A stretch of DNA of 64,000 bases from Nostoc carneum NIES-2107 (GTDB taxonomy: Bacteria; Cyanobacteriota; Cyanobacteriia; Cyanobacteriales; Nostocaceae): the NCBI GenBank assembly GCA_002368155.1, contig AP018180.1, positions 496,001 through 560,000 of the forward strand, read 5' to 3'. The first letter of the stretch is position 1; the number at the start of each line of letters is the position of its first letter. Positions 3,790-51,314 of this stretch are shown here, piece by piece. Made by a program: the position numbers and the translations under genes. The notes under the pieces are model-generated. The model saw only the letters and a list, made by a program, of their open reading frames with translations. It searched no databases and had not been told where the DNA came from.

Positions 3790-5316
3790 TTACAGATCTA
3801 AACCACCTTTTTGCAATTGTTTAAATGGATCTAAGATAAAATCTATGAGGCGACGCTGACGGACAATTACTTCTGCTGTTGCAGTTTGTCCAGGGGTTAA
3901 GGGTATACGTTTATTACCAACTTGGATATCAGACTGATTTAGAGCAATTTCCATTTCAAAAACTTCTATTTTACCTTGGGGAGTTTCTATCAATTTGGAA
4001 TCTGGTGAAAGTCGGATAACTTTACCTGTAATTACTCCATAATCTTGGAATGGATAAGCATCAAACTTAACTTTGACTGGCATTCCTACCTTTAAAAAAC
4101 CACTTTCTTGACTAGGGATGTTCGCTTTCATCGCAAATGGAACGCCTTGCGGAGAAATTCGGGCAATTGTTTCACCAGTTTGGACAAATACCCCTGGCTT
4201 TTTAATTGGCATATTAAAAATTACACCATTAATCGGTGATTTTATTAATCTTTGTACTAGTTGAATTTTGATAGAAGTAATTTGGCTTTTGGTTTGGGCG
4301 ATTTCTGATTTAAGACTAGTAATTTGGGTTTGCATATCTTTCAGTTGTTCCTGATTTTTTAGCAAAGCCAATTTACCTGCATGGACTACAGTTTTGTAAC
4401 TATTTTGTTCCTCCTGTAGTCGCAATTTTGCTTGCTGAATATCTGCTTGGGCTTGACGCATTATGCCCTGGTAACGGTTTCTTTCTTCTTGAAAGCGTAA
4501 TTTTGCTTGTTTAACATCTGATTCGCTTTGTTCAAAGAGTCTTTCACTTTCATCAGCAATTTTTTCTAGTTCTACAACTTTAATTTGAGGCACTGCACCC
4601 TGGTTTCCTAGAGGTCGATAACGCTGGATTTCTAATAAATCTCTTTGCCAACGACTGGTAGATAACTTATAAGCAGTCTGAGTAGAAATTTGGTTTTGTT
4701 CAGCCTGACTAACTAATGCTAATTTCTCCAGCTTTTGTAGATTATAAGTACTCTGTCTCGCATCTAAATTTTGCTGTGCTTGATTGACTTGGGCAAGTTT
4801 TTCTAATTCTTGAGATTGGTTTTGTTGTTCTTGAACACCAATTGCTAGTCGTAATTGGTTTTTGAGTAGTTCTAGTTGTGCTAATCGATTTTGTAATCCC
4901 TCTAACTTTGCTTGTCCCTGTTGTAAATCGGTTTTAAGGACATTAGAATCTAGTTCTGCAAGTAACTGGCCAGCTTTGACAGTTTCGCCTTCCTTCACCT
5001 TGACAGCAATAATATTACCAGCCGCTTGAGAGTCTAATCTGAGAGTTTCACCTAATGGTTCAATACGACCTCTTGCGCTTCCTGTCTCATCTACTTGTGA
5101 AAGCATTGCCCAAGGTAAAGCGATCGCACTAAAAACCACCAGTAAATATAATAAGGATCTTGTCCAACGTCTGGGTAAGGCATCTAGTAGTTCTTCTGTA
5201 CCGTAATGCCAATCATGAGTATGATCTGCTTTAGCATGATTGTCTTCAATACTTGTTGATTTATTACTTGCTTGCTCAGTTAATATCGATGATGAATTAC
5301 TAGCAGGATTAGGCAT
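3790..5316 (-). CDS. HlyD-family membrane fusion protein
   Basis: A 508-residue periplasmic adaptor. A cytoplasmic N-terminus of about 48 residues precedes one transmembrane helix (about 49-72, SLLYLLVVFSAIALPWAML). A lipoyl-type half-motif follows (IIAVKVKEGETVKAGQLLAE), then a long coiled coil of about 130-345 rich in Q, L, E and K, the second lipoyl half (SPINGVIF...GVFVQTGETIARI) and a C-terminal beta-barrel region. It would link the inner-membrane ABC exporter to an outer-membrane channel; no TolC-like gene is in the window. It lies between the C39-ABC gene (121 bp upstream) and the isomerase gene on the same strand. Confidence 0.93.
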   Translation of the reverse strand: MPNPASNSSSILTEQASNKSTSIEDNHAKADHTHDWHYGTEELLDALPRRWTRSLLYLLVVFSAIALPWAMLSQVDETGSARGRIEPLGETLRLDSQAAGNIIAVKVKEGETVKAGQLLAELDSNVLKTDLQQGQAKLEGLQNRLAQLELLKNQLRLAIGVQEQQNQSQELEKLAQVNQAQQNLDARQSTYNLQKLEKLALVSQAEQNQISTQTAYKLSTSRWQRDLLEIQRYRPLGNQGAVPQIKVVELEKIADESERLFEQSESDVKQAKLRFQEERNRYQGIMRQAQADIQQAKLRLQEEQNSYKTVVHAGKLALLKNQEQLKDMQTQITSLKSEIAQTKSQITSIKIQLVQRLIKSPINGVIFNMPIKKPGVFVQTGETIARISPQGVPFAMKANIPSQESGFLKVGMPVKVKFDAYPFQDYGVITGKVIRLSPDSKLIETPQGKIEVFEMEIALNQSDIQVGNKRIPLTPGQTATAEVIVRQRRLIDFILDPFKQLQKGGLDL

Positions 5317-5437
5317 AGTATAATAATGAATTTTTCAGATTTACTGAAACAATAAACTGCTATTTAACTTGTGTACTAGCGACAAACTTGCAGGAAAATT
5401 ATGCTGAATATATGCCCCAAAAAGTCTGAATTTATAA

Positions 5438-28630: not shown

Positions 28631-30193
28631 ATGGATTTTGCTAATCTTGCATCCCAGTTAAATGCTGGAACGATTTTACCAGAGGGTATTGTCATACTCA
28701 CCCTTTTGGGGGTTTTGATTGTTGATTTGATTTTAGGGCGTACATCTTCGCGCTGGATTGGGTATCTAGCGATCGCAGGTTTGCTTGCGTCGATTGTCGC
28801 CCTGTATTTTCAATGGGATTCTACTAATCCCATTGCCTTTAGCGGTGGCTTTAATAGTGACGACCTTAGTCTGGTCTTCCGCGGGATTATTGCCTTATCT
28901 GCCGTAGTCACCATCTTAATGTCCATTCGCTACGTGGAACAGAGTGGCACGGCTTTAGCAGAATTCATTGCGATTTTGCTTACCGCTACCCTAGGAGGAA
29001 TGTTCTTATCTGGGGCTAGTGAGTTGGTGATGATTTTCATCTCCTTAGAAACCCTGAGTATTTCCTCTTATTTGTTAACTGGTTATACCAAGCGTGACCC
29101 GCGCTCTAATGAAGCGGCGCTGAAATACTTGTTGATTGGCGCTTCCAGTACAGCAGTATTTTTATATGGCGTATCGCTGCTGTATGGTTTATCAGGTGGA
29201 CAAACAGAACTGAGTGCGATCGCTAATGGCATTGCTACAGCTCACATTGGTCAATCATTAGGTATTGTGATTGCCTTGGTGTTTGTGATTGCCGGGATTG
29301 GCTTTAAAATTTCTGCTGCACCCTTCCACCAATGGACTCCAGACGTTTATGAAGGCGCACCCACCCCAGTGATTGCCTTTTTATCTGTTGGTTCCAAAGC
29401 AGCAGGTTTTGCCTTAGCTATCCGCTTACTCACCACCGTCTTCCCCTTGGTTGCTGACGAGTGGAGATTTGTCTTCACCGCCCTTGCTGTTCTCAGCATG
29501 ATTTTGGGTAACGTAGTCGCCCTAGCCCAAACCAGCATGAAACGGATGCTGGCTTATTCATCCATTGCCCAAGCTGGCTTTGTGATGCTTGGCTTGATTG
29601 CTGGTACTGAAGCCGGATACGCCAGTATGATATTTTACTTGCTGGTCTATCTGTTCATGAACCTGTGCGGTTTTACCTGCATTATTCTGTTCTCCCTCCG
29701 GACAGGAACCGACCAGATTGCCGAATACTCTGGTTTGTATCAAAAAGACCCACTGCTCACCTTGGGTTTAAGCATTTCCCTGCTATCGTTAGGCGGTATT
29801 CCCCCACTAGCCGGATTCTTCGGGAAAATTTACCTATTCTGGGCTGGTTGGCAAGCAGGCCTTTACTGGCTAGTCTTGTTAGGCTTAGTTACTAGCGTTG
29901 TCTCCATCTACTACTACATCCGCGTAGTCAAGATGATGGTAGTCAAAGAACCGCAAGAAATGTCTGATGTGGTAAAAAATTACCCTGCCATCAATTGGAA
30001 TTTACCAGGCTATAGACCTTTGCAGGTAGGGTTGGTAGTAACTTTAATCGCTACTACCATTGCCGGGATTTTGTCAAATCCCTTATTTACCTTAGCTAAC
30101 AATTCAGTTGCTCATACAGCCATATTGCAAACAGCTACAATTGTCAGCTCGCAAGCAAGTGCAGTTACTATCAAGCAACCCGAAGAGTTATAA
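28631..30193 (+). CDS. ndhB: NAD(P)H-quinone oxidoreductase subunit 2 (NdhB)
   Basis: 520 residues with about fourteen transmembrane helices. Antiporter-family signatures: the glutamate in [17 protein letters not shown], the lysine region [38 protein letters not shown] and [16 protein letters not shown]. It is a proton-pumping membrane subunit of NDH-1, working with NdhD and NdhF proteins. A single gene, convergent with the histidine kinase pair, with a large stem-loop between. Confidence 0.97.
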
Positions 30194-34903: not shown

Positions 34904-35347
34904 CTACTTGCTGGTACTCATCTCAAAATCAGCTGAGCAATCCCAGGATAAATAGAGAGGGTTTGAGATTCTTTCCAGCCAACGTCCTACATCTGTTATC
35001 AAAGCATAGCCGTTGTAGTCAATATCCTTAAATACCTGTATTTGTTTACAAAAATAACGACCTGAACCTCGGAAATTACGTAAGTTGACGAGTCCTACTT
35101 CTATCGCATCAGCATTGATTTGATGAATTTGATGAGGCGTTGCCAGATATGTATTTAAATGCTGATTGACAAGTTTGTTAACCTGACTCATCAACTGTTC
35201 AACAAGGCTGTTGACAGCTTTCTGCCGATTTTTAAAACAGAGATCACCTACAAGTCCCACTGCGGCAAAGACTGGGATTAAGAATGAGACAACAACTATC
35301 AGCCGTAGAGGTAACTTCTGGCAATTAGCAACACCAGGATATGTCAT
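34904..35347 (-). pseudogene. Truncated paralogue of the Cache sensor kinase
   Basis: 147 codons. The first 115 or so parallel the N-terminus of the hybrid kinase next door: LPLRLIVVVSF against VPLRLILILPF, FAAVGLVGDL against FTAVGLVGYL, and HLNTYLATPHQIHQINADA against HLDTYLVTPHQINQINLDA. After QVFKDI the similarity ends, the sequence turns unrelated, and it stops. There is no kinase, HAMP or second membrane helix. It is best read as the leftover of a tandem duplication. A short membrane sensor fragment that still makes protein cannot be excluded. Confidence 0.75.
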
Positions 35348-36813: not shown

Positions 36814-37527
36814 ATGAAAGAAGTTCTAGATTTAATCGAAAATAAAAAGCAAGAATTTGCTCAGTTGCCATTATTTAACTTCATGCGTGACCAAAACATA
36901 GACCCCAGGCAAAGATTAGCTTGGGCACCATGTGCGGCTCATTTCATCATGAATTTTGGTGAACTGAACAAATATTTTCTCCGGGTAGAACCCACTGAAG
37001 ATCCTTTGCAAATCATAATTAATAACCATACTTATGAAGATGATCATCATTGGCTATGGTTTTTGGAAGATCTCAAGCATTTAAAACTCGATCAATCACT
37101 AAAATTTAGCGAAGCATTGAAATTTCTTTGGAGTGAAGAAACTAAAAATGCTCGTTGGCTAAACTATCAACTTTATAAATATACTGCACAAGCTACTCCT
37201 ATTCAGAAAATCATCGTCATAGAAGTGACTGAAGCCACAGGTAATGTAATGTTCTCCACAGCCGCAGATATTGCTAAACAAATTAAAGCAATTACACAAA
37301 AAGAATGCAGATATTTTGCAGATTTTCATTTGAATGTTGAGACAGGTCACATTACAGGTTCAGCCGGAATCCGACAATTACTACAAGATATTCAACTACC
37401 AGAGTCTAACCAAATAGAAGCTTTGGAATTAGTTGATACTTTATTTGCTGTGTTTGCGAAATTTACCAATGACCTTTTGCTTTATGCTGAAACTCACAAA
37501 ATTGAGCAGATATTGACATCTGTATGA
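36814..37527 (+). CDS. Haem-oxygenase-fold diiron (HDO-type) protein
   Basis: 237 residues, all-helical in appearance. Possible diiron ligands occur in the expected order: E and H in NHTYEDDHHWLWF, E in VIEVTEATGNVMF, and H-x(3)-E-x(2)-H in FADFHLNVETGHITG. The family (TenA/CADD-like iron-containing redox enzymes) includes oxygenases that act in natural-product pathways. It is the first gene of the halogenase cluster, 44 bp ahead of the halogenase, and is presumably co-transcribed with it. The reaction is unknown. Homology to the CADD/UndA group is inferred from motif spacing only. Confidence 0.7.
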   Translation: MKEVLDLIENKKQEFAQLPLFNFMRDQNIDPRQRLAWAPCAAHFIMNFGELNKYFLRVEPTEDPLQIIINNHTYEDDHHWLWFLEDLKHLKLDQSLKFSEALKFLWSEETKNARWLNYQLYKYTAQATPIQKIIVIEVTEATGNVMFSTAADIAKQIKAITQKECRYFADFHLNVETGHITGSAGIRQLLQDIQLPESNQIEALELVDTLFAVFAKFTNDLLLYAETHKIEQILTSV

Positions 37528-37571
37528 AATTCTTTATGGCTCGTTAATTTATTTTTGAAAAGGAAGGTTTT

Positions 37572-39233
37572 ATGATGTCAGACAATGTACGGCAAATTGT
37601 AATTGTTGGCGGTGGTTCAGCAGGTTGGATGACAGCAGCTTATTTGAGTAAAGCCTTAGATGAAAGGGTAAAAATTACTTTAATTGAATCATCTAATATT
37701 ACAAAAATTGGAGTAGGTGAAGCAACTTTCAGTACTATCAAAGTATTCTTTGATTTTCTAGGGCTAAAAGAACAGGATTGGATGCCCAAATGTAATGCCA
37801 CCTACAAAATGGCAATTAAGTTTATGAATTGGAATGCCAAGGGTCAACATTTCTATCATCCCTTCCAGAGATATGAGGTAATTGATAGCTTCGATATCTC
37901 AGAATGGTGGCTAAAAATGAAAAGAGCACAAGAAGCATTTGATTATGCCTGCTTTGTAATTCCTTGGTTATGCGACAATCAAAAATCTCCTAGATATCTT
38001 GATGGCAAAGTTTTTGATGATAAAGTTCAAAATGAATTTTCTCAAGAGCAGATCGCCAAGAAAAATATCTTGGATAATTTAAAAGTTCAATACCCCTATG
38101 CATATCATTTTGATGCGAACCTACTAGCAAAGTTCATGAAAGATTATGCAATGCAAAGAGGTGTGCAGCAAATTGTTGATGATGTGGTAGATGTTCAGTT
38201 AACCGAAGATGGGAATATAGATAGTCTTAACACCAAAAAGTATGGCCTTCTTCAAGGAGACCTTTTCATTGACTGTACTGGGTTTCAGGGTCTGTTAATC
38301 AACAAAACTCTAAATGAGCCATTCATTTCTTTTTCAGAGTCACTGCTGTGCGATCGCGCGATCGCTATGCAAATACCCAGCGATATGCAAAAAAATGGCA
38401 TTAACCCTTACACAACATCAACTGCACTGTCTTCTGGTTGGGTTTGGGACATACCTTTGTATGGCAGAAATGGTACAGGGTATGTTTACTCTAGTGCTTT
38501 TATTTCTGAAGAGGAAGCAGAACAGGAATTTCGCCAGCATTTAGGAGAAGTTGCAAATAACAGCAAAGCATCTCATATCAAAATGAGGATTGGACGCAAC
38601 AGAAATTCATGGGTGAAAAACTGCGTAGCAATTGGTCTTTCCAGTGGATTTGTCGAGCCATTAGAATCTACGGGTATCTTCTTTATTCAACATGCTATTG
38701 AAGAGTTAGTTAATCACTTCCCAGGCAAATGTTTCAATGAAGAGCTGATTCGCAGTTACAACAAAGCTGTTGCTGACTGCATAGATGGTGTCCGAGATTT
38801 CTTGATCCTTCATTACTGTGCTAGCGATCGCGCTGATACAAAGTTCTGGCAAGCAACCAAGAACGATATCAAAGTTCCAGAAGAACTACAGGAAAAATTA
38901 AGATTATGGAAAAATAGACTCCCAAGCAACAAGAGTATCAACCCGAAATACCACGGCTTCGAGTCTTACTCTTATTCGGTAATGTTGCTAGGACTAAATT
39001 ACATCCCTGAAAGCAGCCTTCCTGTTTTAGAGCATATCCGAAATCACAATGCCCAAGCTGTATTCCAAGCCATCAAGGAAAGAGCCGATTACCTAATTTC
39101 CACGTTGCCTTCTCAATATGAATACTTGACTTATGTAATCCAGTCTCAAGAACATTCAGAATATCTCAGAGATAATCATTTCCCTACTGCATTGGTGAAC
39201 GATATGGCCCAGATATCTGTACCAATTTCATAA
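37572..39233 (+). CDS. FAD-dependent tryptophan halogenase family protein
   Basis: 553 residues, the usual size. FAD-binding VGGGSAGWMTAAYL is at residues 12-25. Lys79 in NATYKMAIKF matches the lysine that carries or guides hypohalous acid in PrnA/RebH. The halogenase motif WxWxIP is present as GWVWDIPL near residue 288. The catalytic glutamate-serine pair lies in GFVEPLESTGIFF. An AAGGAAGG site precedes a double ATG (37572 or 37575). All hallmark residues are intact, so an active chlorinase or brominase is expected. It needs a flavin reductase, and none is adjacent. Substrate could be free tryptophan, an indole or a peptide; sequence does not decide. Confidence 0.93.
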   Translation: MMSDNVRQIVIVGGGSAGWMTAAYLSKALDERVKITLIESSNITKIGVGEATFSTIKVFFDFLGLKEQDWMPKCNATYKMAIKFMNWNAKGQHFYHPFQRYEVIDSFDISEWWLKMKRAQEAFDYACFVIPWLCDNQKSPRYLDGKVFDDKVQNEFSQEQIAKKNILDNLKVQYPYAYHFDANLLAKFMKDYAMQRGVQQIVDDVVDVQLTEDGNIDSLNTKKYGLLQGDLFIDCTGFQGLLINKTLNEPFISFSESLLCDRAIAMQIPSDMQKNGINPYTTSTALSSGWVWDIPLYGRNGTGYVYSSAFISEEEAEQEFRQHLGEVANNSKASHIKMRIGRNRNSWVKNCVAIGLSSGFVEPLESTGIFFIQHAIEELVNHFPGKCFNEELIRSYNKAVADCIDGVRDFLILHYCASDRADTKFWQATKNDIKVPEELQEKLRLWKNRLPSNKSINPKYHGFESYSYSVMLLGLNYIPESSLPVLEHIRNHNAQAVFQAIKERADYLISTLPSQYEYLTYVIQSQEHSEYLRDNHFPTALVNDMAQISVPIS

Positions 39234-39249
39234 ATTAGGAATACCCAAC

Positions 39250-40788
39250 ATGAAAGCAACAAAAATATGCGTCATTGGGGCTGGAGTTAGTGGATTAGTC
39301 TCAGCAAAGACATTTCTTGAAGAGGGTTACGAAGTTACATTGTTCGAGAAGCGGCAAGGACTCGGCGGTGTGTGGGAAAAGTCCAGAGCTTATCCTGGAC
39401 TAGCTATCCAAAATCCCAGAGATACATATGCTTTTTCTGACTATCCCATGCCAGCCTCTTATCCAGAGTGGCCTTCAGGTGAGCAAATATGTGCTTATCT
39501 AGAATCCTATGCAACACACTTTGGTGTAACGCCAAGAATTCAATTTAGAGCGCTAGTCACTAAAGTTGAGCGCAAATCCGGAAATCAACCTGGATGGATA
39601 GTTAGTGTGAGCTTTCACGAGGATGGCCAAGAGGCTAGAAAGGAAAAGTATGAGTTTGACTTTGTAATTGTGTGCAATGGCACTTATGACATTCCCTATG
39701 TGCCAAACTTGCCGGGTATGGATGAATTCATTGCCTCTGGAGGAAAAGTAATTCATACCAACAACTTTAATGATGGCTCTGTAGTTGAAGGTAAACGAGT
39801 CGTAGTTGTAGGTTTTGGCAAGTCTGCTACTGATGTTGCCAATTTTGCTGCCACCAAAGCCAAGGAATGTACCCTTGTCTTCCGTCAAGCATTGTGGAAA
39901 GTTCCTAATTTCTTTCTCGGTCTAGTTAACCTTAAATATATTTTCTTAACTCGATTCGCAGAATTTTGGATGCCCTATCATAAACTGCAAGGATGGGAAA
40001 AGTGGCTACATAGTTTTGGCAAACCACTGGTGTGGGCTTTCTGGCGGATCAACGAGACACTCTTACGCTTACAGTTTCCTTTTGATGCTTGTGGAATGCT
40101 GCCCAAACAGCCGATGAACAAATTGATTGGCTGTAGTATCAGCTTGGTGCCTAAAGGCTTCTTTGAGCATATACGTGCTGGCAAAATTCGTACCATCAAG
40201 ACAAAAATCAACAAGTTTTCTGCTGATGGGGTGGAATTGGAGAACGGCGAGGAAGTGCCAGCAGATATCGTCGTCTTTGGCACCGGATTTCTTCAGGATA
40301 TAGCATTTTTAGATGAGCAGTACCGCAGACAGGTATTCGATCGCCAAGGTATTATCCATCTTTATCGCCACCTCATTCATCCCCACGTTCCCCAAATGGG
40401 TTTTGTTGGTTATAACTATACCTTCTGTGCCCAGTTATCAGCAGAAATTGGTGCCCGGTGGTTATCAGAGTATGTCAAAGGAAATATTAATCTACCATCT
40501 CCGCAAGAGATGCTCAATGAAGTCAACACAGAGTTGGAATGGAGGCAAAAAGATAGACCCTATGCTTTCGTAAGTGGAGCATGTGTAACTCCTTTTACTT
40601 TCCATTATATTGATGAGTTGCTTCAGGATATGGGTCTCAATACCCACCGCAACTCAGGAAACTTGATTGGAGAATACCTGATGCCAATAGATCCATCCGC
40701 TTACAAGAACCTCCGACAGGAACTACAGGCCAAAAGATATTCATCTGTCAATAACTCAGGAAGCGCTGAAACTTTGGCAGTAACTTAA
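39250..40788 (+). CDS. Flavin-containing monooxygenase (FMO-like)
   Basis: 512 residues. FAD-binding VIGAGVSGLVSAKTF near the N-terminus, NADPH-binding VVVVGFGKSATDVA in the middle, and an FMO/BVMO-type segment GGKVIHTNNFND before it. GVWEKSRAYPGLAIQNPRD also fits the family. Such enzymes oxygenate nitrogen or sulfur, or insert oxygen next to ketones. It begins 16 bp after the halogenase stop, so the two are transcribed together. Tailoring of the halogenated product is the simplest role; the exact chemistry is not evident. Confidence 0.9.
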   Translation: MKATKICVIGAGVSGLVSAKTFLEEGYEVTLFEKRQGLGGVWEKSRAYPGLAIQNPRDTYAFSDYPMPASYPEWPSGEQICAYLESYATHFGVTPRIQFRALVTKVERKSGNQPGWIVSVSFHEDGQEARKEKYEFDFVIVCNGTYDIPYVPNLPGMDEFIASGGKVIHTNNFNDGSVVEGKRVVVVGFGKSATDVANFAATKAKECTLVFRQALWKVPNFFLGLVNLKYIFLTRFAEFWMPYHKLQGWEKWLHSFGKPLVWAFWRINETLLRLQFPFDACGMLPKQPMNKLIGCSISLVPKGFFEHIRAGKIRTIKTKINKFSADGVELENGEEVPADIVVFGTGFLQDIAFLDEQYRRQVFDRQGIIHLYRHLIHPHVPQMGFVGYNYTFCAQLSAEIGARWLSEYVKGNINLPSPQEMLNEVNTELEWRQKDRPYAFVSGACVTPFTFHYIDELLQDMGLNTHRNSGNLIGEYLMPIDPSAYKNLRQELQAKRYSSVNNSGSAETLAVT

Positions 40789-40896
40789 TAGCTCACCCAA
40801 GGAACTTGGCGCTATCAAGGTTAAGGGAACAGGAAAAGGTCTTTTATCCCTCACCCTTTTCCCTTTACCCATCTCGGTTTTACCTGACATCTCTTG

Positions 40897-40956
40897 AGTT
40901 GTCACAATCGATAAAAGCAGCAACGGTTATTGATTGTGACAACTTGATAAAAGCAG
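40897..40956. promoter_or_regulatory. 13-bp inverted repeat with flanking direct repeat
   Basis: AGTTGTCACAATC at 40897-40909 and GATTGTGACAACT at 40932-40944 are perfect complements. GATAAAAGCAG occurs right after each arm (40910-40920 and 40946-40956). The structure lies 40 bp before the hydrolase ATG, so it may be an operator, an attenuator or a terminator for the upstream genes. Confidence 0.5.
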
Positions 40957-40995
40957 TTTTAATTCCGTGCAAAATCCTTCTTCTTCCCAAACTCA

Positions 40996-41874
40996 ATGCT
41001 TTATCGAAATTTTACAACCCAAGCTGAGCTAGATGCTCAATACAATCCAGCCGAGTCAGGCATGGATATACCTGCATATTTGACTTGGTATGTTACTGAA
41101 AGTCAAAAAGTACGCCAAGAGCTAAATTGCCATCTCAATATTCCCTTCGGCCCTAGCCTAGCAGAAACTCTCGACATATTTCCCGCAGCGCAACCTCAAG
41201 CTCCCATCTTAGTATTTATCCACGGTGGCTACTGGATGATGGCTAGCAGTCAAGATTTTAGTTTTGTTGCTAAAGGTTTGGTAGCTGCTGATGTTACTAC
41301 CATCGTCATTAACTATGCTTTATGCCCACAAGTCACTATTGACGAGATTGTCCGTCAAACTCGAGCTGCTATGGTTTGGATTTATCGTCACGCCGAAACC
41401 TTCGGAGGAGATCCTAACCGCATCTACGTATCTGGTCACTCAGCAGGTGGTCACCTAACTGCTATGGTCATGGGAACAGACTGGAAAAATGACTATGGGC
41501 TACCCGATGACATTATTAAAGGCGGCTGTGCTATTAGTGGCTTGTTTGACTTGATGCCGTTTCCTTACACCTGGCTACAACCTAAAATACAACTCACTTG
41601 GGGTCAAGTTGTCCGCAATAGCCCAATTAATAACATTCCTGAAAAGGCAGGGTCTTTAATTGTTACTTATGGCAGTGAAGAAACCTACGAGTTCCATCGT
41701 CAGTCACAAGAGTTCTTGGTTGCATGGAAAGCAAAATCACTTGTAGGTGAGTATTTACCACAACCAGGAAAAAACCATTTCACTGCGATCGATGGTTTCC
41801 TTAATCCTAATAGTCAACTTTGCACTGCTATTTTCAAACAGATGGGAGTAGCCCCTGAAAATACTCAAAATTAA
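40996..41874 (+). CDS. Arylformamidase-like alpha/beta hydrolase
   Basis: 292 residues. The oxyanion motif HGGYW (His76 onward) is the hallmark of kynurenine formamidase-type hydrolases. The nucleophile is Ser149 in VSGHSAGGHLTAM, an acidic residue lies in TYGSEETYEF, and the catalytic His is in GKNHFTAID. The first residues (YRNFTTQAELDAQYNP) also match that group. It follows the FMO gene by 207 bp on the same strand. In the cluster it could deformylate an N-formyl aromatic intermediate such as a halogenated N-formylkynurenine; that is inference. A general carboxylesterase is the alternative. Confidence 0.85.
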   Translation: MLYRNFTTQAELDAQYNPAESGMDIPAYLTWYVTESQKVRQELNCHLNIPFGPSLAETLDIFPAAQPQAPILVFIHGGYWMMASSQDFSFVAKGLVAADVTTIVINYALCPQVTIDEIVRQTRAAMVWIYRHAETFGGDPNRIYVSGHSAGGHLTAMVMGTDWKNDYGLPDDIIKGGCAISGLFDLMPFPYTWLQPKIQLTWGQVVRNSPINNIPEKAGSLIVTYGSEETYEFHRQSQEFLVAWKAKSLVGEYLPQPGKNHFTAIDGFLNPNSQLCTAIFKQMGVAPENTQN

Positions 41875-41938: not shown

Positions 41939-44900
41939 TCATACCGGAATCTCAATCACAAACTCAGTTCCTTGTTCTGGAGTGGAATTACAGATTAACT
42001 TACCTTTGTGTTTGTCCACAACAACTTGATAACTAATAGACAATCCCAAACCTGTACCCCTTCCTATAGGTTTTGTGGTAAAAAATGGCTCAAAAACTTT
42101 CTGCTGTATCTGTGCAGTCATACCATGACCATTATCAGCAATCCGAATTCTCACAATTTTCTCATCTTGAAGTTCAGTGTGAATGCGAATTTCAGGATTG
42201 AATGTTACAGAATCTAGCTGATGATTGTACTCATCTAAAGCATCAATCGCATTACTTAAGATATTCATAAATACTTGATTGAGTTGCCCAGCATAACAAC
42301 TAATTTCTGGTATCTTGGCGTATTGTTTCACGATTTCAATTTCGGGACGAATACTATTTTCTTTGATGCGATGCTGCAAAATCATCAAAGTGCTATCAAT
42401 TCCCTCATGAATATTAACAGGCTTCATTTCCGATTCATCTAGACGAGAGAAGTTGCGTAACCCTAAAATGATATTGCGGATACGAGAACTGCCCAGCTTC
42501 ATAGAATCAAGAACCTTGGGTAAATCTTCTGCCAGGAAATCTAAATCCATTTCCTCAACCTTGTTGCTGATTAAATCAGAAGTCACAGGGTATTCTTGCT
42601 GATAAATACTGACTAAATCTAGCAAGTCTTGCACATATTCATGAGCATGGGTAATATTGCCATGAATAAAATTGATAGGATTATTAATCTCATGAGCAAT
42701 ACCTGCTACCATTTGCCCTAAAGAAGACATTTTTTCACTTTGGATTAATTGGCTTTGCGTACTACGTAATTCTTCTAGAGCCTGTTGCAAATGGTAATTC
42801 TTTTCATTAATTTCTTGGGTTCTTTCTGCCACCTTTGTTTCTAAATCGTGATTGTATTCTGCTAATTGGGTATTGGCAGCCTCTAAATTTTGATAAAGAA
42901 GAGCATTCTCTAATGAAATAGCCGCTTGGGTAATAATTAACTTCAAAACTTCTAAGCGCTCTTGGGTAAATGCTTCCGTCGTTAAATTATTTTCTAGGTA
43001 AATGATGCCTAGCAATTTACTTTGGTTAATAATAGGAATACATAATATACTCTTTGGCTCCTCACGAGTAATATATATATCTAATGCAAAGGCCGCTTGA
43101 GTTTTAATATCATCAATCACCAATATCTCTTGAGTTCGTTTTACATAATTGATTAAAGTAATGGGTACATGATCGCTAGACTCTAAAGGAATAGATAAAA
43201 ACTCTGTGTAATGGGCGGCAAAGTTTCCATGAGAACTAACTGCGGTAATAGTTAAATCTAAGTTATTGACATCACTCAGAATCAGTACACATTTAGAAGC
43301 TCCTGCATTCTCCATTACAACTTTTATCAAAGTAGAAAGAAGCGCCTTAAGTTCAATTTCTCCGGAGACTGCTTGGGAAGCTTTAATGACAGCAGCCAAA
43401 TCTAGCATATCCGAAATGCTCGTATTAGAACCGAGAATAGTTTCATGAGTAGCTATGGTAGATTGATGGCTAGTTGTAGATAAGTATGCTCTCTGTTCTA
43501 GTAAGTTATTTTCACTAGAAGATGACTTCAGTTTCTCCTGCTGAATAATCGGTGTAAGTAATTGAGGGTAGCGTTTTTTCAAGTCATTAATTTTGGCTTT
43601 TGCACCCCAGCGAATATAGGAATAGTAAGCATCAATGAGGTAGGTTTGGGCAATTTTTTGTTTGCCCCATTCAAGATAAAATTTAGCCGCTAGTTCATAA
43701 GCGAGGGCTTCTTCTGTGATGTAACCGTTTTCTTTGGCATGGGCAATAGCATACTCATAATTATCTATAGCTGCGAGATATTGACCAAGAACTCTACACT
43801 TTTCTGCTTCTACCAAATAAAATTTATGCAAGTGATTCATCGGGGCGTGGTCTGCCCAATTCTGCATCTTGCGTTGATTTTCAGTTACTTTTTGCAGAAT
43901 TTGTTCTTGTTCCGCTTCCTCGGATTCACTATATATTGCCAAATGTGCTAATGAATTGTAGAAGTAGAACTGAGGAGTCACTAACATACCGACTCCAGCA
44001 TATAAGTATTTTTCTCCCTGAACCGCATTTCTCATAGCTTCATGATAATCGTTCAGCAGATAACATAAGTGAAGTTTGCAGAAATACAGGAAGAAAAGCG
44101 CTACACCATCCTTAGCTTCAAGATGAATAGGTAGCATTTTTTCTTCGTTATATGCTTCCCCGATTAAGTTAACTGGTTTTTCCACAGTTCCCAGCAAATT
44201 CAAAATGGTCTGCCGAAATATTTCATTCCACTGAAATACTCTTTCTTGTTTAATCTGTCTAATTGTATTGCTGTATGTTGCTATCTCTCTTTGCAGATCT
44301 CCTAATTCTTGACCAAGGAAATAGGCATGATACGAGTAACCATAAAGAGCATAAGCTGCAAATTCCATATCTCCTGCTTCGAGATTTACAGTGTATGCCT
44401 CTAGTAAAGGTTTTAATGTTGTTCTGACATGTTCTTTCCAATGCTTGACAAGATGATTAAATGTTTCAATAACCTTGCCTGTAACTTCTTTCGCCTGGAA
44501 TTTTGGCAACAAACTTTCAGCCAGCTTACCAAATTTATAACCAGAATCAATTTCTTCCACTATCCCACATAGCATGACTCCATACATCACATATGCAAAA
44601 GCAGATAAAGGAGCATTACCATATTTGATTGATAAATTAATTTGTTTGAGGATAATCAACAGCAATAGTTCAGGCGCAACCGTATATGTCATACCAATTG
44701 TACTAGCCAAAATATCGAGGATTATCAGTGGTTGCACCTCTGTGATTTCTGGCAGGTCGATTAAGTTTTCAATGTTTATATCAGCCAACTTTGCAGATGT
44801 TCTTTCCATTTCTAACTGCACATCTATTTGGCTAGGATTATCGGGAAACTCTACTCCCAAAATTCTCAAAATGGTTTTTGCAATATTGACAGCTTCTAGT

Positions 44901-47530
44901 TCTTTACCCTGTGCCCCATAGGCCTGTATTTGAACTTCATAAGCCTTAATTTTATCTAACAACGTTGTTGCTTTTTGCAACACTACTTGGATTAGATGCT
45001 CTGTTAACTCAAAATTACCACTAAGATATGCTGCTTCTGCTGCTGTCTCATATAAAGCTAGGGCTAGCTCATATTTAGTATCCCAACAATCATCTGTCAG
45101 CAGTTCGATTCCTGTAGTTAAATACTTGCTTGCAGATGAGTAAGCTGTTGATATCAAAGCTTTACGTCCTGCAGTCAAATTCATCACAGCTAGCTCATCA
45201 CGTTGAGCTTGATTAGTAATGAATTCACGTGCAATATTGAACTGATTGACAAGCTCAAAAATCTTGTCTTCCCGTTCTGCTATTGGGATATTACTTGACA
45301 AAAGTAACCCAATTTTTAAATGGATTGGCTTTCTTTGCTCTTCAGGAATGAGAGAATAAGCGGCTTGTTGTACTCTATCATGTACAAATTTGTATTTCGG
45401 TAATTGGTAACTACTAATTGTTAAGTCATCTAATGCTTGATTATCATCTGTCGAAATTAAATTGTATCCATCAGTCAAAGGTAAAATTAGCCCTTCAAAT
45501 AAGGCTGTCCATAAGTCTGATGCTGTATCCATGACAGACTTCTCATTGACAATCGCCAAAGTTTTTAAATCAAATTCATTACCTATGCAAGCAGCAAACT
45601 TTAACACATTTTGTGTATTTATGGGCAATTTTTCTATTTGAATGCCCATGAATTCCACAACATCATCTGTCAGAGATAAAGTTTTTATTTTAGCAATATC
45701 GTACTGCCAATAACCAACATCAAGATTTAATTTAATCAGTCCATCATCGCATAATGACTTGAGAAATTGAGAGGCAAAAAATGGGTTACCTTTGGTTTTG
45801 GCAAACACCATCTGAGTTAAAGGAACAGCAATTACCTCACGGCAATGAAGTGTATCAGCAATTAAATGGTTTAAATCAACTTGATTAAGAGGTGAAAGTT
45901 GAATTTGATTAATGACTGCTCCCGTTTGAGCAATTTCCTTGAGAGTTAAATTCAAGGGATGTAAATTTGAGACTTCATTATCTCTATAAGCACCAATCAG
46001 TAGTAAATTTCCCTTATTTTCAGAGCCTTTTTCTATCTCATCTGTAATCTGAGCAGCAGTTTCACGCATTAATAATTCGATAAATTTTAAAGAAGCATTA
46101 TCCGCCCATTGCAAATCATCTAGAAAAATTACTAGAGGATGTTCTTTAGTAGTGAAAACTTGGATAAATCTCTGAAATAATAAGTTAAATCGATTTTGAG
46201 CAGCGACACCAGCAAGTTCAGCTACTGACGATTGTTGACCAATAATTTTTTCTAATTCAGGAATTACATCAACGATTACCTGACATTGTGTACCTAGTGC
46301 CGATATAATTTTGGCTTTCCAATCTTGAATTTGGGCATCTGTTTCTGAGAGTATTTGGCCAATTAAGTTACGTAATGCTTGTACCAAACCTGACAAAGGA
46401 ATATCTCGTTGCATCTGGTCAAACTTGCCTTTGATAAAGTAACTCCGTTGCCGTGCTATGGGTTTGTGAATTTCATTGACTACAGCGGTTTTACCAATAC
46501 CAGAAAAACCAGAAACTAAAATCATTTCTGTTTTATCGTTGCTGACTCGCTCAAAGGTAGTCAGTAATGTTTCAATTTCTTTTTGGCGACCATAAAGTTT
46601 TTCTGGAATCGCAAATTGATTAGAGATATCTCTAACTCCTAATGCAAAAGATGCAATATTTTCTTTCTCTTGCCATTGCCTTTGGCATATTTCTAAGTCA
46701 TGTCTGATTCCATGCACACTCTGATATCTATCTTCAGCATTTTTTGCCATTAGCTTGTTGATAATATCAGCTAAAATTTGGGGAATTTTAGAGTTTACCA
46801 AGCTAGCTTTTGGTGCTTCTTTAGCAATGTGTGAATAGACTAACTCCATTGGATCATTAGTGTTGAAGGGTAACTGTCCAGTGAGCAGTTCAAAAAAGGT
46901 AACACCCAAAGAGTAAAAATCTGTACGGTAGTCAATACCTCTGTTCATGCGTCCCGTTTGTTCAGGAGAAATGTAAGCTAGAGTTCCTTCTAAAACATTA
47001 GGATTCTTAATAGATTGAATTTCTTTTGGTAATAAAGTCGCAAGACTAAAGTCTATCAGCTTAATTTCTCTAGTTGTGGGATGAACTAGAATATTTGCAG
47101 GTTTAATGTCTTTATGAATTATACGATGGCTATGCAGTTGTTCCAGAGTAGAGCAAATTGACAGCGCTATCTTAAAAAATTCTTTTAATGGAACAAAATT
47201 ATTGCCCTGTTCTCGCTCTCTTGTTTGCCAATCTTTGAGGGATATAGCTTCATAATCCTCCATGAGCAGAACATAGCCATTGCGGTAATTTTCTAAGCTG
47301 AGGGGTCTGACTATGCCTGGAATATCCAGATTTTGAGTAATAGTATATTGATTGCGAAATTGACTAATTTCTGCAAATGTAGGATATTCATTTCGCATCA
47401 ATTTCAGGATGACCCTCTGCTCGTCTTGTTCTCTGATACCTCGATAAACTACAGTCTTTTTACCTGAATAGAGTTGCTCAGTGATGCGATAGCCAATGAT
47501 AGGAGATACTGTATCTGATACGAGTAACAT
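41939..47530 (-). CDS. Trifunctional Ser/Thr kinase - AAA ATPase - GAF - histidine kinase
   Basis: 1,863 residues. Residues 10-270 form a Ser/Thr kinase with HRD-type loop IIHKDIKPANILV and metal loop IDFSLATLL (DFS, not DFG). A predicted ATPase module follows (Walker A GFSGIGKTAVV near 340, IFLDDLQWAD for Walker B). A long helical, TPR-like region spans about 620-1,350. A GAF domain at about 1,380-1,530 is followed by HisKA (MVAGIAHEINNPINF) and HATPase (ADNGHGMTAQIQQKVF, GRGTGLGLSISYQ). No membrane segment is seen. This architecture is a known cyanobacterial signalling type. A receiver protein gene lies 760 bp upstream on the same strand. The signal is unknown. Confidence 0.94.
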   Translation of the reverse strand: MLLVSDTVSPIIGYRITEQLYSGKKTVVYRGIREQDEQRVILKLMRNEYPTFAEISQFRNQYTITQNLDIPGIVRPLSLENYRNGYVLLMEDYEAISLKDWQTREREQGNNFVPLKEFFKIALSICSTLEQLHSHRIIHKDIKPANILVHPTTREIKLIDFSLATLLPKEIQSIKNPNVLEGTLAYISPEQTGRMNRGIDYRTDFYSLGVTFFELLTGQLPFNTNDPMELVYSHIAKEAPKASLVNSKIPQILADIINKLMAKNAEDRYQSVHGIRHDLEICQRQWQEKENIASFALGVRDISNQFAIPEKLYGRQKEIETLLTTFERVSNDKTEMILVSGFSGIGKTAVVNEIHKPIARQRSYFIKGKFDQMQRDIPLSGLVQALRNLIGQILSETDAQIQDWKAKIISALGTQCQVIVDVIPELEKIIGQQSSVAELAGVAAQNRFNLLFQRFIQVFTTKEHPLVIFLDDLQWADNASLKFIELLMRETAAQITDEIEKGSENKGNLLLIGAYRDNEVSNLHPLNLTLKEIAQTGAVINQIQLSPLNQVDLNHLIADTLHCREVIAVPLTQMVFAKTKGNPFFASQFLKSLCDDGLIKLNLDVGYWQYDIAKIKTLSLTDDVVEFMGIQIEKLPINTQNVLKFAACIGNEFDLKTLAIVNEKSVMDTASDLWTALFEGLILPLTDGYNLISTDDNQALDDLTISSYQLPKYKFVHDRVQQAAYSLIPEEQRKPIHLKIGLLLSSNIPIAEREDKIFELVNQFNIAREFITNQAQRDELAVMNLTAGRKALISTAYSSASKYLTTGIELLTDDCWDTKYELALALYETAAEAAYLSGNFELTEHLIQVVLQKATTLLDKIKAYEVQIQAYGAQGKELEAVNIAKTILRILGVEFPDNPSQIDVQLEMERTSAKLADINIENLIDLPEITEVQPLIILDILASTIGMTYTVAPELLLLIILKQINLSIKYGNAPLSAFAYVMYGVMLCGIVEEIDSGYKFGKLAESLLPKFQAKEVTGKVIETFNHLVKHWKEHVRTTLKPLLEAYTVNLEAGDMEFAAYALYGYSYHAYFLGQELGDLQREIATYSNTIRQIKQERVFQWNEIFRQTILNLLGTVEKPVNLIGEAYNEEKMLPIHLEAKDGVALFFLYFCKLHLCYLLNDYHEAMRNAVQGEKYLYAGVGMLVTPQFYFYNSLAHLAIYSESEEAEQEQILQKVTENQRKMQNWADHAPMNHLHKFYLVEAEKCRVLGQYLAAIDNYEYAIAHAKENGYITEEALAYELAAKFYLEWGKQKIAQTYLIDAYYSYIRWGAKAKINDLKKRYPQLLTPIIQQEKLKSSSSENNLLEQRAYLSTTSHQSTIATHETILGSNTSISDMLDLAAVIKASQAVSGEIELKALLSTLIKVVMENAGASKCVLILSDVNNLDLTITAVSSHGNFAAHYTEFLSIPLESSDHVPITLINYVKRTQEILVIDDIKTQAAFALDIYITREEPKSILCIPIINQSKLLGIIYLENNLTTEAFTQERLEVLKLIITQAAISLENALLYQNLEAANTQLAEYNHDLETKVAERTQEINEKNYHLQQALEELRSTQSQLIQSEKMSSLGQMVAGIAHEINNPINFIHGNITHAHEYVQDLLDLVSIYQQEYPVTSDLISNKVEEMDLDFLAEDLPKVLDSMKLGSSRIRNIILGLRNFSRLDESEMKPVNIHEGIDSTLMILQHRIKENSIRPEIEIVKQYAKIPEISCYAGQLNQVFMNILSNAIDALDEYNHQLDSVTFNPEIRIHTELQDEKIVRIRIADNGHGMTAQIQQKVFEPFFTTKPIGRGTGLGLSISYQVVVDKHKGKLICNSTPEQGTEFVIEIPV

Positions 47531-48290: not shown

Positions 48291-48926
48291 CTATTTGACT
48301 TTCTGTTTAATGAAGGTCACAACCTGCGTTAGCTGTTTCTTCAAGCTCTCTATTTCTGCTTGCATCTTGGCAATTTTTTCATTTAACAGCTCAATTTCTC
48401 CAGAGGATGCGGGAGCAACACTTGGAGCAGTAACTGTAGCATTACTATTAACAGCAGCTGGAGCTGTGGCAAAACTATGGCTAGAAGTTACAGTTGCACT
48501 ATTAGCAACAGCAACGCCTGCTCCTACTAGAACTGGTTCTGGGCGTACCTGTTTAGCTTTCGCCATTGCTGACTTAATGGCACCAATGAGTTGCTTCTGG
48601 TCAAACGGCTTACCCAGAAATTCAAAATATTCAAAGGGTTCTGAAATTTTTTCAGTTACCTCTTCCTTACGACCAGACATCATTACTAGAGGAATCTTCC
48701 TTAACTCAGGTTGGGCTTGAATTTGCTGGAACACTTCCCAACCGCTCATTTTCGGTAGTAGAAAATCTAACATGATTAAACTAAATTTATCTTTAAGGAT
48801 GTAATTTAGTCCTTCTAAGCCGTCTTTTGCTTCTACTACCTCGAAATTGCCAGGCGGCAACATCTCTCGTACTTTTACCCTGACAACTGTGGTGTCATCA
48901 ATAACTAGAATTTTGTTACTTGCCAC
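48291..48926 (-). CDS. Response regulator with coiled-coil tail
   Basis: 211 residues. A receiver domain (about 1-125) has acidic residues in VIDDTTVVR, the phospho-acceptor aspartate in LIMLDFLLPKMSGW and the lysine in FLGKPFDQ. A low-complexity A/V/S/T linker (about 130-175) leads to a coiled coil (EIELLNEKIAKMQAEIESLK). No DNA-binding or enzymatic output domain is present, so it probably acts through protein contacts. It lies on the same strand as the trifunctional kinase, a possible partner. Confidence 0.9.
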   Translation of the reverse strand: MASNKILVIDDTTVVRVKVREMLPPGNFEVVEAKDGLEGLNYILKDKFSLIMLDFLLPKMSGWEVFQQIQAQPELRKIPLVMMSGRKEEVTEKISEPFEYFEFLGKPFDQKQLIGAIKSAMAKAKQVRPEPVLVGAGVAVANSATVTSSHSFATAPAAVNSNATVTAPSVAPASSGEIELLNEKIAKMQAEIESLKKQLTQVVTFIKQKVK

Positions 48927-49179
48927 GACTTATTACTCTAACAGAAACTATAGGTGTAGATGGCTATTATGCCCATTGACATTGAGAATGCTCTTACTAT
49001 ATCCAACATTTATCTTGATTGGGGGAGAGTATATTTTCGGTATAAGTGATTTTCGGGGATGTGTTTTCTAGAACCTCTGCTCGTCTTCTGGTCAATTTAT
49101 GTCATGGTAATATTTAAGGCTTTAACCTTGCTCTAGAGCATAGAGAATTTGCTCCACAGTACCTTTGGATCTCCCGTGG

Positions 49180-50088
49180 ATGTCTATGAATTCGTCACAA
49201 CAAGCCCAACTCAAGTCAGAAATAATGGCCATGCCCAGCTGGTTACGTCGTTCTATCGGCAAAGCCAGCGAAATTTCTACAGTACAACGGATTATTAAGC
49301 AGCGCCAAATTCATACAATTTGCGAGGAAGGACGTTGTCCCAACCGAGGAGAGTGCTATGCCCAAAAAACTGCTACTTTTCTGCTAATGGGCCCTACTTG
49401 TACTCGTTATTGTGCATTTTGTCAAGTAGATAAAGGTCATGCACCAATGCCCATAGATTTAGAGGAACCGCAAAAGGTGGCAGAAGCTGTTAAGCTTTTG
49501 GGTTTACGTTATGTGGTACTGACTTCTGTAGCCCGTGATGACTTGGCAGACCAGGGAGCAGGGCATTTTGTCCAAACAATGGAAACTATCCGCAAGTTGA
49601 ACCCAGAAACTCAAATAGAAGTGCTGACACCAGATTTTTGGGGTGGTATCGGTGCTGGGGAGGAAGGACAACGCCAAAGGATAGAGATGATTGTCAAGGC
49701 GAAGCCTGCTTGTTTTAACCACAATATTGAGACGGTGCGACGCTTAACTGGGCCTGTGCGCCGGGGCGCAAAATACGATCGCTCGCTGCATGTACTTGAA
49801 CTAGTCAAAGAAATCGACTCCTCTATCCCTACCAAATCTGGTTTAATGCTGGGACATGGCGAAACCTTTGATGAAATCATAGAAGCGATGAAAGATTTAA
49901 GAGCAGTGGGATGCGATCGCTTAACTATTGGTCAGTATATGCGACCTTCCCTAGAACATCTGCCAGTTCAAAAATACTGGACTCCAGAAGAATTTGATCA
50001 ACTTGCCAGCCACGCATGGCAAATGGGATTTAGCCACGTCCGTTCTGGGCCTCTGGTTCGGAGTTCCTATCATGCGGGGGAGGATTGA
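49180..50088 (+). CDS. lipA: Lipoyl synthase
   Basis: 302 residues from the ATG at 49180 (MSMNSSQQ); ATG 49186 is equally possible and an upstream TTG is unlikely. The auxiliary cluster cysteines are in [12 protein letters not shown] and the radical-SAM CxxxCxxC is in [13 protein letters not shown]. The C-terminal RSSYHAGE supplies the conserved serine ligand. It inserts two sulfurs into octanoyl groups on lipoyl-dependent enzymes. Cyanobacteria commonly carry two lipA copies; I cannot tell which this is. A single gene followed by a repeat block and psaX. Confidence 0.95.
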
Positions 50089-50447: not shown

Positions 50448-51314
50448 TCAAATCGTGCCTTTAAATAAACCCTTGGGACGAATGAGCAGCACCAAAATCA
50501 TGATTAACAGCGCTACTCCTTGTTTATACTGAGAACCAAGCCAAGGGGTGCTGACTTCTTGCACTATGCCAATGATAAAAGCAGCTGCGATCGCTCCGTA
50601 AGGATTACCTATCCCCCCCAAAATTACTGAGGCAAATAAAGGCAGAATCAAAAACCACCCCATATTTGGGCGCACTGCTGTGATTAAACCGTACATACTG
50701 CCACCCAAGGATGTGAGTGTCCCAGCAATTAACCATGTCCAGAGGATTACTTGCTCTACATTAATTCCCGACACTCTAGCTAAATCTAAATCGTCAGCAA
50801 CTGCTCGCATTGCCTTGCCAATTTTTGTATTTTGCAGCAGGTAATGCAGTGCCAAAATCGCCAGTACTGCTAACCCCAACACTAATAACTGATTTTGTGG
50901 TACCTTTAAGCCGAAGATATCTAAAGCTTGGGTCACAGGTAAATTGTAATTTTGGTTCTTGCCTCCCCAAATGAGGATAATGCCATTGCGGAGGAATAAG
51001 GCCAATCCAATAGAAATGATAATTAGCGTCGTGGAAGTAGCACGGAGACTACGCATTCTTGACCACAGTAATTTTTCTGATACCAGCATCATTACTACTG
51101 TTCCCGCTGCAGCTAGTACCATTGATAGCCAAATATTTACGCCTGCACTGTTAACTAGCAGCGTTAGATAAGCTCCCAAAGTCAGAAAATCTCCGTGGGC
51201 AAAATTAGACAACCGTAAAATCCCATAGGTAAGGGTAAGTCCGACTGCGCCCAGAGCAATAATACTCCCTACAGCAATTCCATTAATAATTAATTGAGCA
51301 AGTTGTAGATCCAT
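50448..51314 (-). CDS. Branched-chain/neutral amino acid ABC permease, LivH type
   Basis: 288 residues and about eight transmembrane helices. It opens with LAQLIINGIAVGSIIALGAV and has LRLSNFAHGDFLTLGAY, AMRAVADDLDLARVSGIN (the ATPase-contact loop) and FASVILGGIGNPYGAI, all LivH signatures. It would form the channel with a LivM-type partner. In Anabaena the nearest system known to me is the Nat neutral amino acid importer (NatD is its LivH protein), but the urea-type UrtB is excluded only by lack of urt neighbours. No binding protein or ATPase is adjacent. Confidence 0.9.
   Translation of the reverse strand: MDLQLAQLIINGIAVGSIIALGAVGLTLTYGILRLSNFAHGDFLTLGAYLTLLVNSAGVNIWLSMVLAAAGTVVMMLVSEKLLWSRMRSLRATSTTLIIISIGLALFLRNGIILIWGGKNQNYNLPVTQALDIFGLKVPQNQLLVLGLAVLAILALHYLLQNTKIGKAMRAVADDLDLARVSGINVEQVILWTWLIAGTLTSLGGSMYGLITAVRPNMGWFLILPLFASVILGGIGNPYGAIAAAFIIGIVQEVSTPWLGSQYKQGVALLIMILVLLIRPKGLFKGTI

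What the first reader, a model, noticed from the sequence alone, without database searches (positions are those of the whole stretch)
36814..41874. Compact halogenase cluster: diiron oxygenase, tryptophan-type halogenase, FMO and arylformamidase
Four genes on one strand, with gaps of 44, 16 and 207 bp, encode a haem-oxygenase-fold diiron protein, a flavin halogenase with Lys79, GWVWDIPL and EPLEST intact, a flavin monooxygenase, and an HGGYW hydrolase. Known chlorokynurenine pathways (taromycin type) use a halogenase, a tryptophan dioxygenase and a formamidase. Here the diiron protein could take the dioxygenase place, which would be a new variant. No NRPS or PKS gene is in the window, so the product could be a small free halo-aromatic.
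Basis: partly seen in the sequence, partly recalled or inferred. Interest (0 to 1): 0.82.

Follow-up and report, generated by a model that had tools for sequence, protein, structure and literature searches.

The report
Swappable haloskatole cassette beside sensor kinase
A Nostoc-type cyanobacterium carries a small gene set that probably turns tryptophan into a halogenated skatole (an odour molecule) plus cyanide, and this set sits next to a giant sensor kinase at a chromosomal site where related species carry a terpene-making set or neither.

Summary
The four genes are real and as described. The diiron protein is probably not a stand-in dioxygenase. It is a relative of AetD (39% identity without gaps, all six iron ligands kept) with the T139/T142/F214 residues that a 2026 review gives for SktA, which turns 5-bromotryptophan into 5-bromoskatole. 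The halogenase has tryptophan 5-halogenase residues, so the likely product is 5-haloskatole plus cyanide, oxidised further by the FMO. In all 15 diiron neighbourhoods with this halogenase the FMO follows. The hydrolase is an insertion in the window lineage, but close relatives lie near diiron genes in 6 of 13 genomes.

The unexpected part lies outside the given coordinates. The next gene encodes an 1863-residue Ser/Thr-histidine kinase. Of the 50 closest such kinases in 60 genomes, 20 lie near a diiron gene, 20 near a terpene synthase and 10 near neither; 20 control kinases lie near neither. At one syntenic site (ndhB - cassette - kinase - response regulator - lipA) the cassette is diiron-type in 16, terpene-type in 10 and neither in 7 of 33 loci; in one relative of the same genus the site is empty. 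The first two reactions have published parallels. I did not see the kinase-linked cassette exchange described.

The parts
36814..37527 (+). Haem-oxygenase-like diiron oxidase of the AetD/SktA family; probable halotryptophan-to-haloskatole (+ cyanide) enzyme
   Evidence: AetD 176 bits; gapless, 90 of 232 identical, D76 H79 E140 H172 E176 H179 and Y167 F44 F48 kept, S214 to F; T139/T142/F214
37572..39233 (+). Flavin-dependent tryptophan halogenase, predicted 5-halogenase
   Evidence: PF04820 1.7e-149; best PDB hit tryptophan 5-halogenase 8fov, 610 bits; K79, GWVWDIPL, EPLEST, YHG-FES-YSY
39250..40788 (+). Class B flavin monooxygenase; putative oxidation of haloskatole
   Evidence: PF00743 7e-54; present in 15 of 15 diiron neighbourhoods with this halogenase; alignment of 11
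40897..40944 (.). 18-nt inverted repeat, 94% complementary, 12-nt loop, between FMO and hydrolase
40996..41874 (+). HGGYW alpha/beta hydrolase (lipase / kynurenine-formamidase-like); accessory gene
   Evidence: Lipase 1 142 bits, kynurenine formamidase 56 bits; close relatives near diiron genes in 6 of 13 genomes, window included; absent from the sister locus L193
35478..41944 (.). Stretch (6467 bp) missing from the same site in genome G387 (same genus), which has about 577 unaligned bp there
   Evidence: flank alignment with L194
41939..47530 (-). Giant hybrid kinase: Ser/Thr kinase, AAA/STAND, GAF, histidine-kinase ATPase; convergent with the cassette
   Evidence: Pfam; close relatives lie near diiron or terpene genes
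48291..48926 (-). Response regulator, recurrent neighbour of the kinase at this site
   Evidence: PF00072; synteny
28631..30193 (+). ndhB-type NDH subunit, left landmark of the site
   Evidence: PF00361 and PF19530; synteny
49165..50088 (+). Radical SAM protein (lipA-like), right landmark of the site
   Evidence: PF04055; the name lipA is recalled; synteny
50448..51314 (-). Branched-chain amino acid ABC permease (livH-like), right landmark
   Evidence: PF02653; the name livH is recalled; synteny

Best explanation
This is a haloskatole cassette at a kinase-linked exchange site. (1) The halogenase puts Cl or Br on C5 of tryptophan (inferred from residues). (2) The diiron enzyme, SktA-like, cleaves the side chain of 5-halotryptophan with O2 to 5-haloskatole plus cyanide (inferred from family and residues; reaction in print for SktA). 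(3) The FMO oxidises the haloskatole, most simply at C2/C3 (inference). (4) In this lineage the added hydrolase may remove a formyl group, for instance from an N-formyl-2-aminoacetophenone made by ring opening, leaving a halo-2-aminoacetophenone (weak inference). (5) The adjacent giant kinase and response regulator stay at the site while the cassette beside them differs between species: diiron/halogenase type, terpene synthase type, or neither (shown by synteny and trees). That the kinase senses or controls the cassette is inferred from its recurrence at such genes at other sites too.
For: Diiron protein: AetD homology and all six ligands; T139/T142/F214 as the review states for SktA. Halogenase: a 5-halogenase as best hit and FES in the PyrH F451/E452/T453 position, against LPP in the 6-halogenase SttH. 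Partners: in 73 neighbourhoods (one contig counted twice, L028 and L078) the diiron gene lies by this halogenase in 15, a CmlS/PltA-type halogenase in 12 and a second flavoenzyme in 8; the 15 form one side of a branch in the tree (support 86). Kinase: 46 of 70 cyanobacterial diiron copies have a long match to it in the fetched stretch; in seven genomes that I picked, 8 of 13 diiron genes lie within 6 kb of one, 0.41 expected, P 7e-10; of the 50 closest kinases in a 60-genome search 20 lie near a diiron gene and 20 near a terpene synthase, against 0 of 20 controls. Exchange: one site with 16 diiron, 10 terpene and 7 neither in 33 distinct loci; 9 changes of state on the kinase tree of 33 and 8 on a flanking-gene tree of 20; an empty site in the same genus.
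Against: T142 and F214 are common through the family; T139 is the more selective one, and 4 of 15 halogenase-linked copies have L or I there, so the residues speak against AetD-like better than they prove SktA-like. I could not read the SktA paper or place SktA in a tree. Identity to AetD is only 39%. Nothing shows the FMO's or hydrolase's substrate; the hydrolase also lies near diiron genes with no FMO. Related kinases at one site go with either cassette kind or neither, which speaks against a receptor for one product. 24 of 70 diiron copies have no such kinase in the stretch (some stretches are cut short), among them the second copy in this genome (L083). 7 of 33 site loci and 10 of the 50 kinases have neither gene.
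Confidence: 0.62

Rival explanations
1. AetD-like nitrile route: the diiron enzyme makes 5-haloindole-3-carbonitrile, which the FMO then modifies.
For: AetD is the only close enzyme of solved structure, has the same ligands and pocket residues F44, F48, Y167, and converts 5-bromotryptophan fully.
Against: The three pocket positions that the review names as differing between AetD and SktA all have the SktA letter here; AetD is a lone long branch apart from the window clade (its place is unsure).
Confidence: 0.17
2. One reading: the diiron enzyme opens the indole ring like tryptophan dioxygenase, and the hydrolase deformylates to a halokynurenine.
For: No PF03301 dioxygenase found in the genome; a formamidase-like hydrolase recurs near diiron genes in several parts of the tree, also without FMO (L080, L183, L186, L191).
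Against: AetD binds the amino-acid end of tryptophan at Fe1, SktA is inferred in the review to bind similarly, and both act on the side chain; the hydrolase is absent from 14 of 15 halogenase-linked loci; an FMO would be left without a role.
Confidence: 0.07
3. The kinase link is only positional: the kinase flank is an insertion hot spot and the kinase has no role in the cassettes.
For: At the ndhB-lipA site the cassette differs among loci whose kinase and flanking genes look vertically inherited; 7 of 33 site loci keep the kinase with neither cassette.
Against: Of 17 of the 40 kinases whose stretch does not show that site, 14 still lie near a diiron gene (6) or terpene synthase (8) (counted; a few stretches are cut short). 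Diiron genes also lie by kinases of several other lineages, convergent, divergent or on one strand.
Confidence: 0.3

Closest known systems
SktA, 5-bromotryptophan to 5-bromoskatole (Adak et al. 2025, JACS 147:6326; seen only through passages of the review PMC13108848 and titles in reference lists)
   Same: Same HDO family; T139, T142, F214; a 5-halotryptophan as substrate fits the neighbouring 5-halogenase type.
   Different: SktA sequence and operon not seen. I recall, from no call, that it comes from Nostoc punctiforme NIES-2108, whose locus L008 has the same trio and 76% identity in the diiron protein but no hydrolase.
AetD, nitrile synthase of aetokthonotoxin
   Same: Six ligands, F44, F48, Y167, no gaps.
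   Different: 39% identity; M139/A142/S214 against T/T/F; a lone long branch apart from the window clade.
PyrH-type tryptophan 5-halogenases
   Same: K79, WxWxIP, F-E-x motif; 8fov 610 bits.
   Different: Lies in a three- to four-gene cassette with a diiron enzyme.
Cyanobacterial sesquiterpene synthase - P450 - hybrid two-component protein clusters (PMC4558948, passages read; Agger et al. 2008, recalled, title seen in its reference list)
   Same: A kinase close to the window's beside terpene synthase genes: four loci and 17 of 40. That the published two-component proteins are of this subfamily was not tested.
   Different: Here the kinase position carries a halotryptophan-diiron cassette.
Taromycin-type chlorokynurenine pathway (recalled, not looked up)
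   Same: Tryptophan halogenase and a formamidase-like hydrolase.
   Different: No tryptophan dioxygenase found in the genome; a diiron enzyme of a side-chain-cleaving family instead.

Membership tests
AetD/SktA-type HDO | 3-His/3-carboxylate ligands D76, H79, E140, H172, E176, H179 | tested here: met
SktA-type | T139, T142, F214 | tested here: met
   T142 and F214 are common in the family
SktA-type | halotryptophan to haloskatole plus cyanide | not testable with these tools
   needs enzyme assay
AetD-type nitrile synthase | M139, A142, S214 | tested here: not met
   T, T, F
Flavin-dependent tryptophan halogenase | PF04820 over cut-off, Lys79, WxWxIP | tested here: met
Tryptophan 5-halogenase | F-E-T/S above the substrate amino acid, as in PyrH 451-453 | tested here: met
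   FES; regioselectivity itself needs an assay
Class B flavin monooxygenase | PF00743 over cut-off | tested here: met
   183.6 bits against 22
Arylformamidase (kynurenine formamidase) | closer to kynurenine formamidase than to lipases, with HGGYW | tested here: inconclusive
   HGGYW met; Lipase 1 142 bits, kynurenine formamidase 56 bits; no NCBIfam cut-off reached
Taromycin-type chlorokynurenine pathway | tryptophan 2,3-dioxygenase (PF03301) | tested here: not met
   0 of 1, own genome
Kinase-linked small-metabolite cassette (my grouping) | kinase close to the window's, near a diiron gene or terpene synthase | tested here: met

The most novel reading that the evidence does not exclude
Heterocystous cyanobacteria have a resident sensor-kinase locus at which whole small-odorant pathways (haloskatole or terpene) are exchanged like alleles. 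The kinase and its response regulator gate or read these volatiles, so strains differ in chemical identity at one site. This would be a chemical signalling system with fixed circuitry and interchangeable messengers.
Probability: 0.22. Interest if true: 0.85.

Novelty: new variant of a known kind. Interest (0 to 1): 0.62.

Why it matters
It moves a guess about chlorokynurenine to a testable route to haloskatole and cyanide in Nostoc-type cyanobacteria. It shows that relatives of the AetD/SktA diiron enzymes are widespread (34 of 386 genomes sampled from the phylum, E up to 0.001) and have been paired with two different kinds of flavin halogenase. It also ties terpene and haloindole gene sets to one group of giant Ser/Thr-histidine kinases, which gives these numerous kinases (25 long matches in this genome) a concrete job to test. 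The empty site in a relative of the same genus gives a natural control.

Tried and rejected
Dioxygenase substitute: rejected as the main reading because of the AetD/SktA relation. Nitrile synthase: my first reading, demoted after the review's residue comparison. Hydrolase as a core gene: rejected, since it is an insertion relative to L193, but kept as a recurrent accessory.

The second flavoenzyme (c5) as an AetF-like halogenase: not shown. Sequence and profile searches against the PDB gave only partial hits to FMO, BVMO, thioredoxin-reductase and similar flavoenzymes, and the AlphaFold model was poor (pLDDT 45), so no fold search was run. Kinase as receptor for one product: weakened. The consensus scan found fewer promoter-like sites than its shuffles and as many terminator-like sites; repeats gave nothing clear apart from the hairpin between FMO and hydrolase; no tRNA at 28000-54000.

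The kinase counts behind one search are those that I counted by eye and are lower bounds, since candidates were capped there; the seven genomes were picked for few contigs among those with a diiron gene.
Full report
What is there. The four ORFs are at the stated places with the stated gaps, and the stated halogenase and hydrolase motifs are present. The genome is 9.36 Mb and the window is G000:C1:496001-560000. It is Nostoc-like: a genome of its own genus, G419, has a contig of the same length (69132) as the Nostoc sp. T09 contig of L003, with the same gene arrangement (inference).

The diiron protein. Its best solved relative is AetD (E 6e-51, 176 bits): 90 of 232 positions identical without a gap, all six iron ligands and Y167, F44 and F48 kept, S214 changed to F (ligands from passages of PMC11611611 and PMC10654658). 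PMC13108848 (passages read) reports that SktA converts 5-bromotryptophan to 5-bromoskatole and differs from AetD by T139, T142 and F214. The window protein has exactly these three. The primary paper, whose title says tryptophan to skatole and cyanide, is not held. Caution: T142 and F214 are common through the family, T139 is not constant even among halogenase-linked copies (L or I in 4 of 15), and AetD itself is the odd long branch.

The halogenase. Best PDB match is a tryptophan 5-halogenase (610 bits). The three residues that distinguish PyrH (5-halogenase) from SttH (6-halogenase) (PMC5071727, passages) are FES here, the PyrH type. AetD is reported to accept 5-bromotryptophan and SktA to use it.

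Conservation. A scan of genome contigs gave 32 loci, and 34 of 386 genomes sampled from the phylum have a relative at E up to 0.001. In 73 neighbourhoods (L002-L033, L064-L103 and the window; L028 and L078 are one contig, and L033 gave no match), this halogenase is present in 15, each time as diiron - halogenase - FMO; a CmlS/PltA-type halogenase is present in 12, a second FMO-like flavoenzyme in 8, and an FMO alone in 3. These neighbourhoods were all found through the diiron gene. The 15 form one side of a branch in a tree of 73 proteins (support 86). The hydrolase is in only 3 of the 73 (window, L015, L080). Searched for on its own, a close hydrolase (E up to 1e-60) occurs in 13 of 145 family genomes, and in 6 of these 13, window included, it lies near a diiron gene, in several parts of the diiron tree (6 changes, of which well-supported branches force 3). 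It is missing from the sister locus L193, where 113 unaligned bp lie between the FMO and kinase matches against 1192 here. So it is a recurrent add-on, and its substrate is open.

The kinase. The convergent neighbour (41939-47530) has protein-kinase, AAA, GAF and histidine-kinase ATPase domains. This genome has 25 long matches to it. Of 70 cyanobacterial diiron copies, 46 have a long match to it in the fetched stretch: 33 downstream convergent, 8 upstream divergent, 5 downstream on the same strand. In seven genomes that I picked, 8 of 13 diiron genes lie within 6 kb of one, with 0.41 expected (P 7e-10). In a tree of 89 kinases (44 near diiron genes, 44 not, 1 other), one group of 35 holds 31 near diiron genes and 4 not; the other 13 near diiron genes lie in further lineages. 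All 4 lie near a terpene synthase (PF19086), 3 of them with a P450 and one with an amine oxidase instead. Terpene synthase - P450 - hybrid two-component clusters are known (PMC4558948, passages).

A sample taken by the kinase, not by the diiron gene. In 60 family genomes I took the 48 listed kinases with at least 2100 bits and two shorter ones with at least 61% identity. Ten lay in stretches already in hand: 7 near a diiron gene, 3 near a terpene synthase. The other 40 gave 13 near a diiron gene, 17 near a terpene synthase and 10 near neither; at least 5 of the 13 (L193, L196, L197, L199, L216) have the contig length of loci already seen under another name. Together 20, 20 and 10 of 50. Twenty controls from just below in the same list (50-54% identity) had 0 of 20. 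The control stretches were 16.6-19.4 kb, the others 9.6-19.4 kb.

One site, several cassettes. The window reads ndhB, two sensor kinases, cassette, giant kinase, response regulator, lipA-like, livH-like. Requiring the kinase plus the response regulator or lipA gives 34 loci, 33 distinct: 16 diiron-type, 10 terpene-type, 7 with neither ('neither' means no match to my queries in the stretch). The kinase tree of these 33 needs at least 9 changes of cassette state. A tree of the two flanking genes in 20 of them needs 8, where diiron and neither are no more clustered than shuffled labels, and the kinase tree of the same 20 needs 7. The simplest reading is a resident kinase and an exchanged cassette; the agreement of the two trees was judged by eye. 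G387, of the same genus, has the flanks at 75-93% DNA identity but about 577 bp where the window has 6467. Of the 17 among the 40 kinases whose stretch does not show this site, 14 still lie near a diiron gene (6) or terpene synthase (8) (counted), which argues against a mere hot spot.

How it most likely works. Tryptophan to 5-halotryptophan (halogenase), then 5-haloskatole plus cyanide (diiron enzyme), then oxidation by the FMO; the added hydrolase may remove a formyl group. The kinase and response regulator probably control the cassette. Shown here: gene content, residues, synteny, differing cassettes. Inferred: every reaction and the control. The first two reactions have published parallels; for the FMO, hydrolase and kinase roles I read none.

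Literature limits. The search for haloskatole terms found only the review and one unrelated paper. I saw no report of diiron/halogenase cassettes beside these kinases or of exchange at one site, but no search was aimed at the exchange itself and most subscription papers are not held.

Noticed in passing
L031, L032, L033: Relatives of the diiron enzyme (26-34% identity) in Serratia rubidaea and two Providencia; L031 and L032 keep the six ligands, T142 and F214. Possible oxygen-dependent skatole formation outside cyanobacteria.
   Followed up: no
G000:C1:1363397-1364071 (L083:9329-10072): A second, distant diiron copy (40% identity) in the window's genome, without halogenase, FMO or giant kinase in the stretch, in a separate branch with L089, L091 and L100.
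   Followed up: partly
L017-L022, L066, L068, L069, L071, L079, L102: Diiron genes paired with a CmlS/PltA-type flavin halogenase; in L017-L022 and L068 the kinase is divergent upstream instead of convergent downstream.
   Followed up: partly
L013, L014, L015, L024, L025, L026, L067, L099: A Pyr_redox_3 flavoenzyme of about 530 aa lies next to the diiron gene where others have the halogenase; function unknown, perhaps a single-component halogenase.
   Followed up: partly
L189:4615-9894: A hydrolase relative follows a gene that looks like trpD, with a trpB-like gene further upstream (names read by eye from the sequence).
   Followed up: no
window 3790-8152: Peptidase C39 ABC transporter with a HlyD-type protein: an exporter of the kind used for double-glycine peptides; precursor not looked for.
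   Followed up: no
window 34904-35347: 147-aa remnant resembling the N-terminus of the neighbouring 952-aa sensor kinase; a similar remnant is at the empty site in L194.
   Followed up: partly
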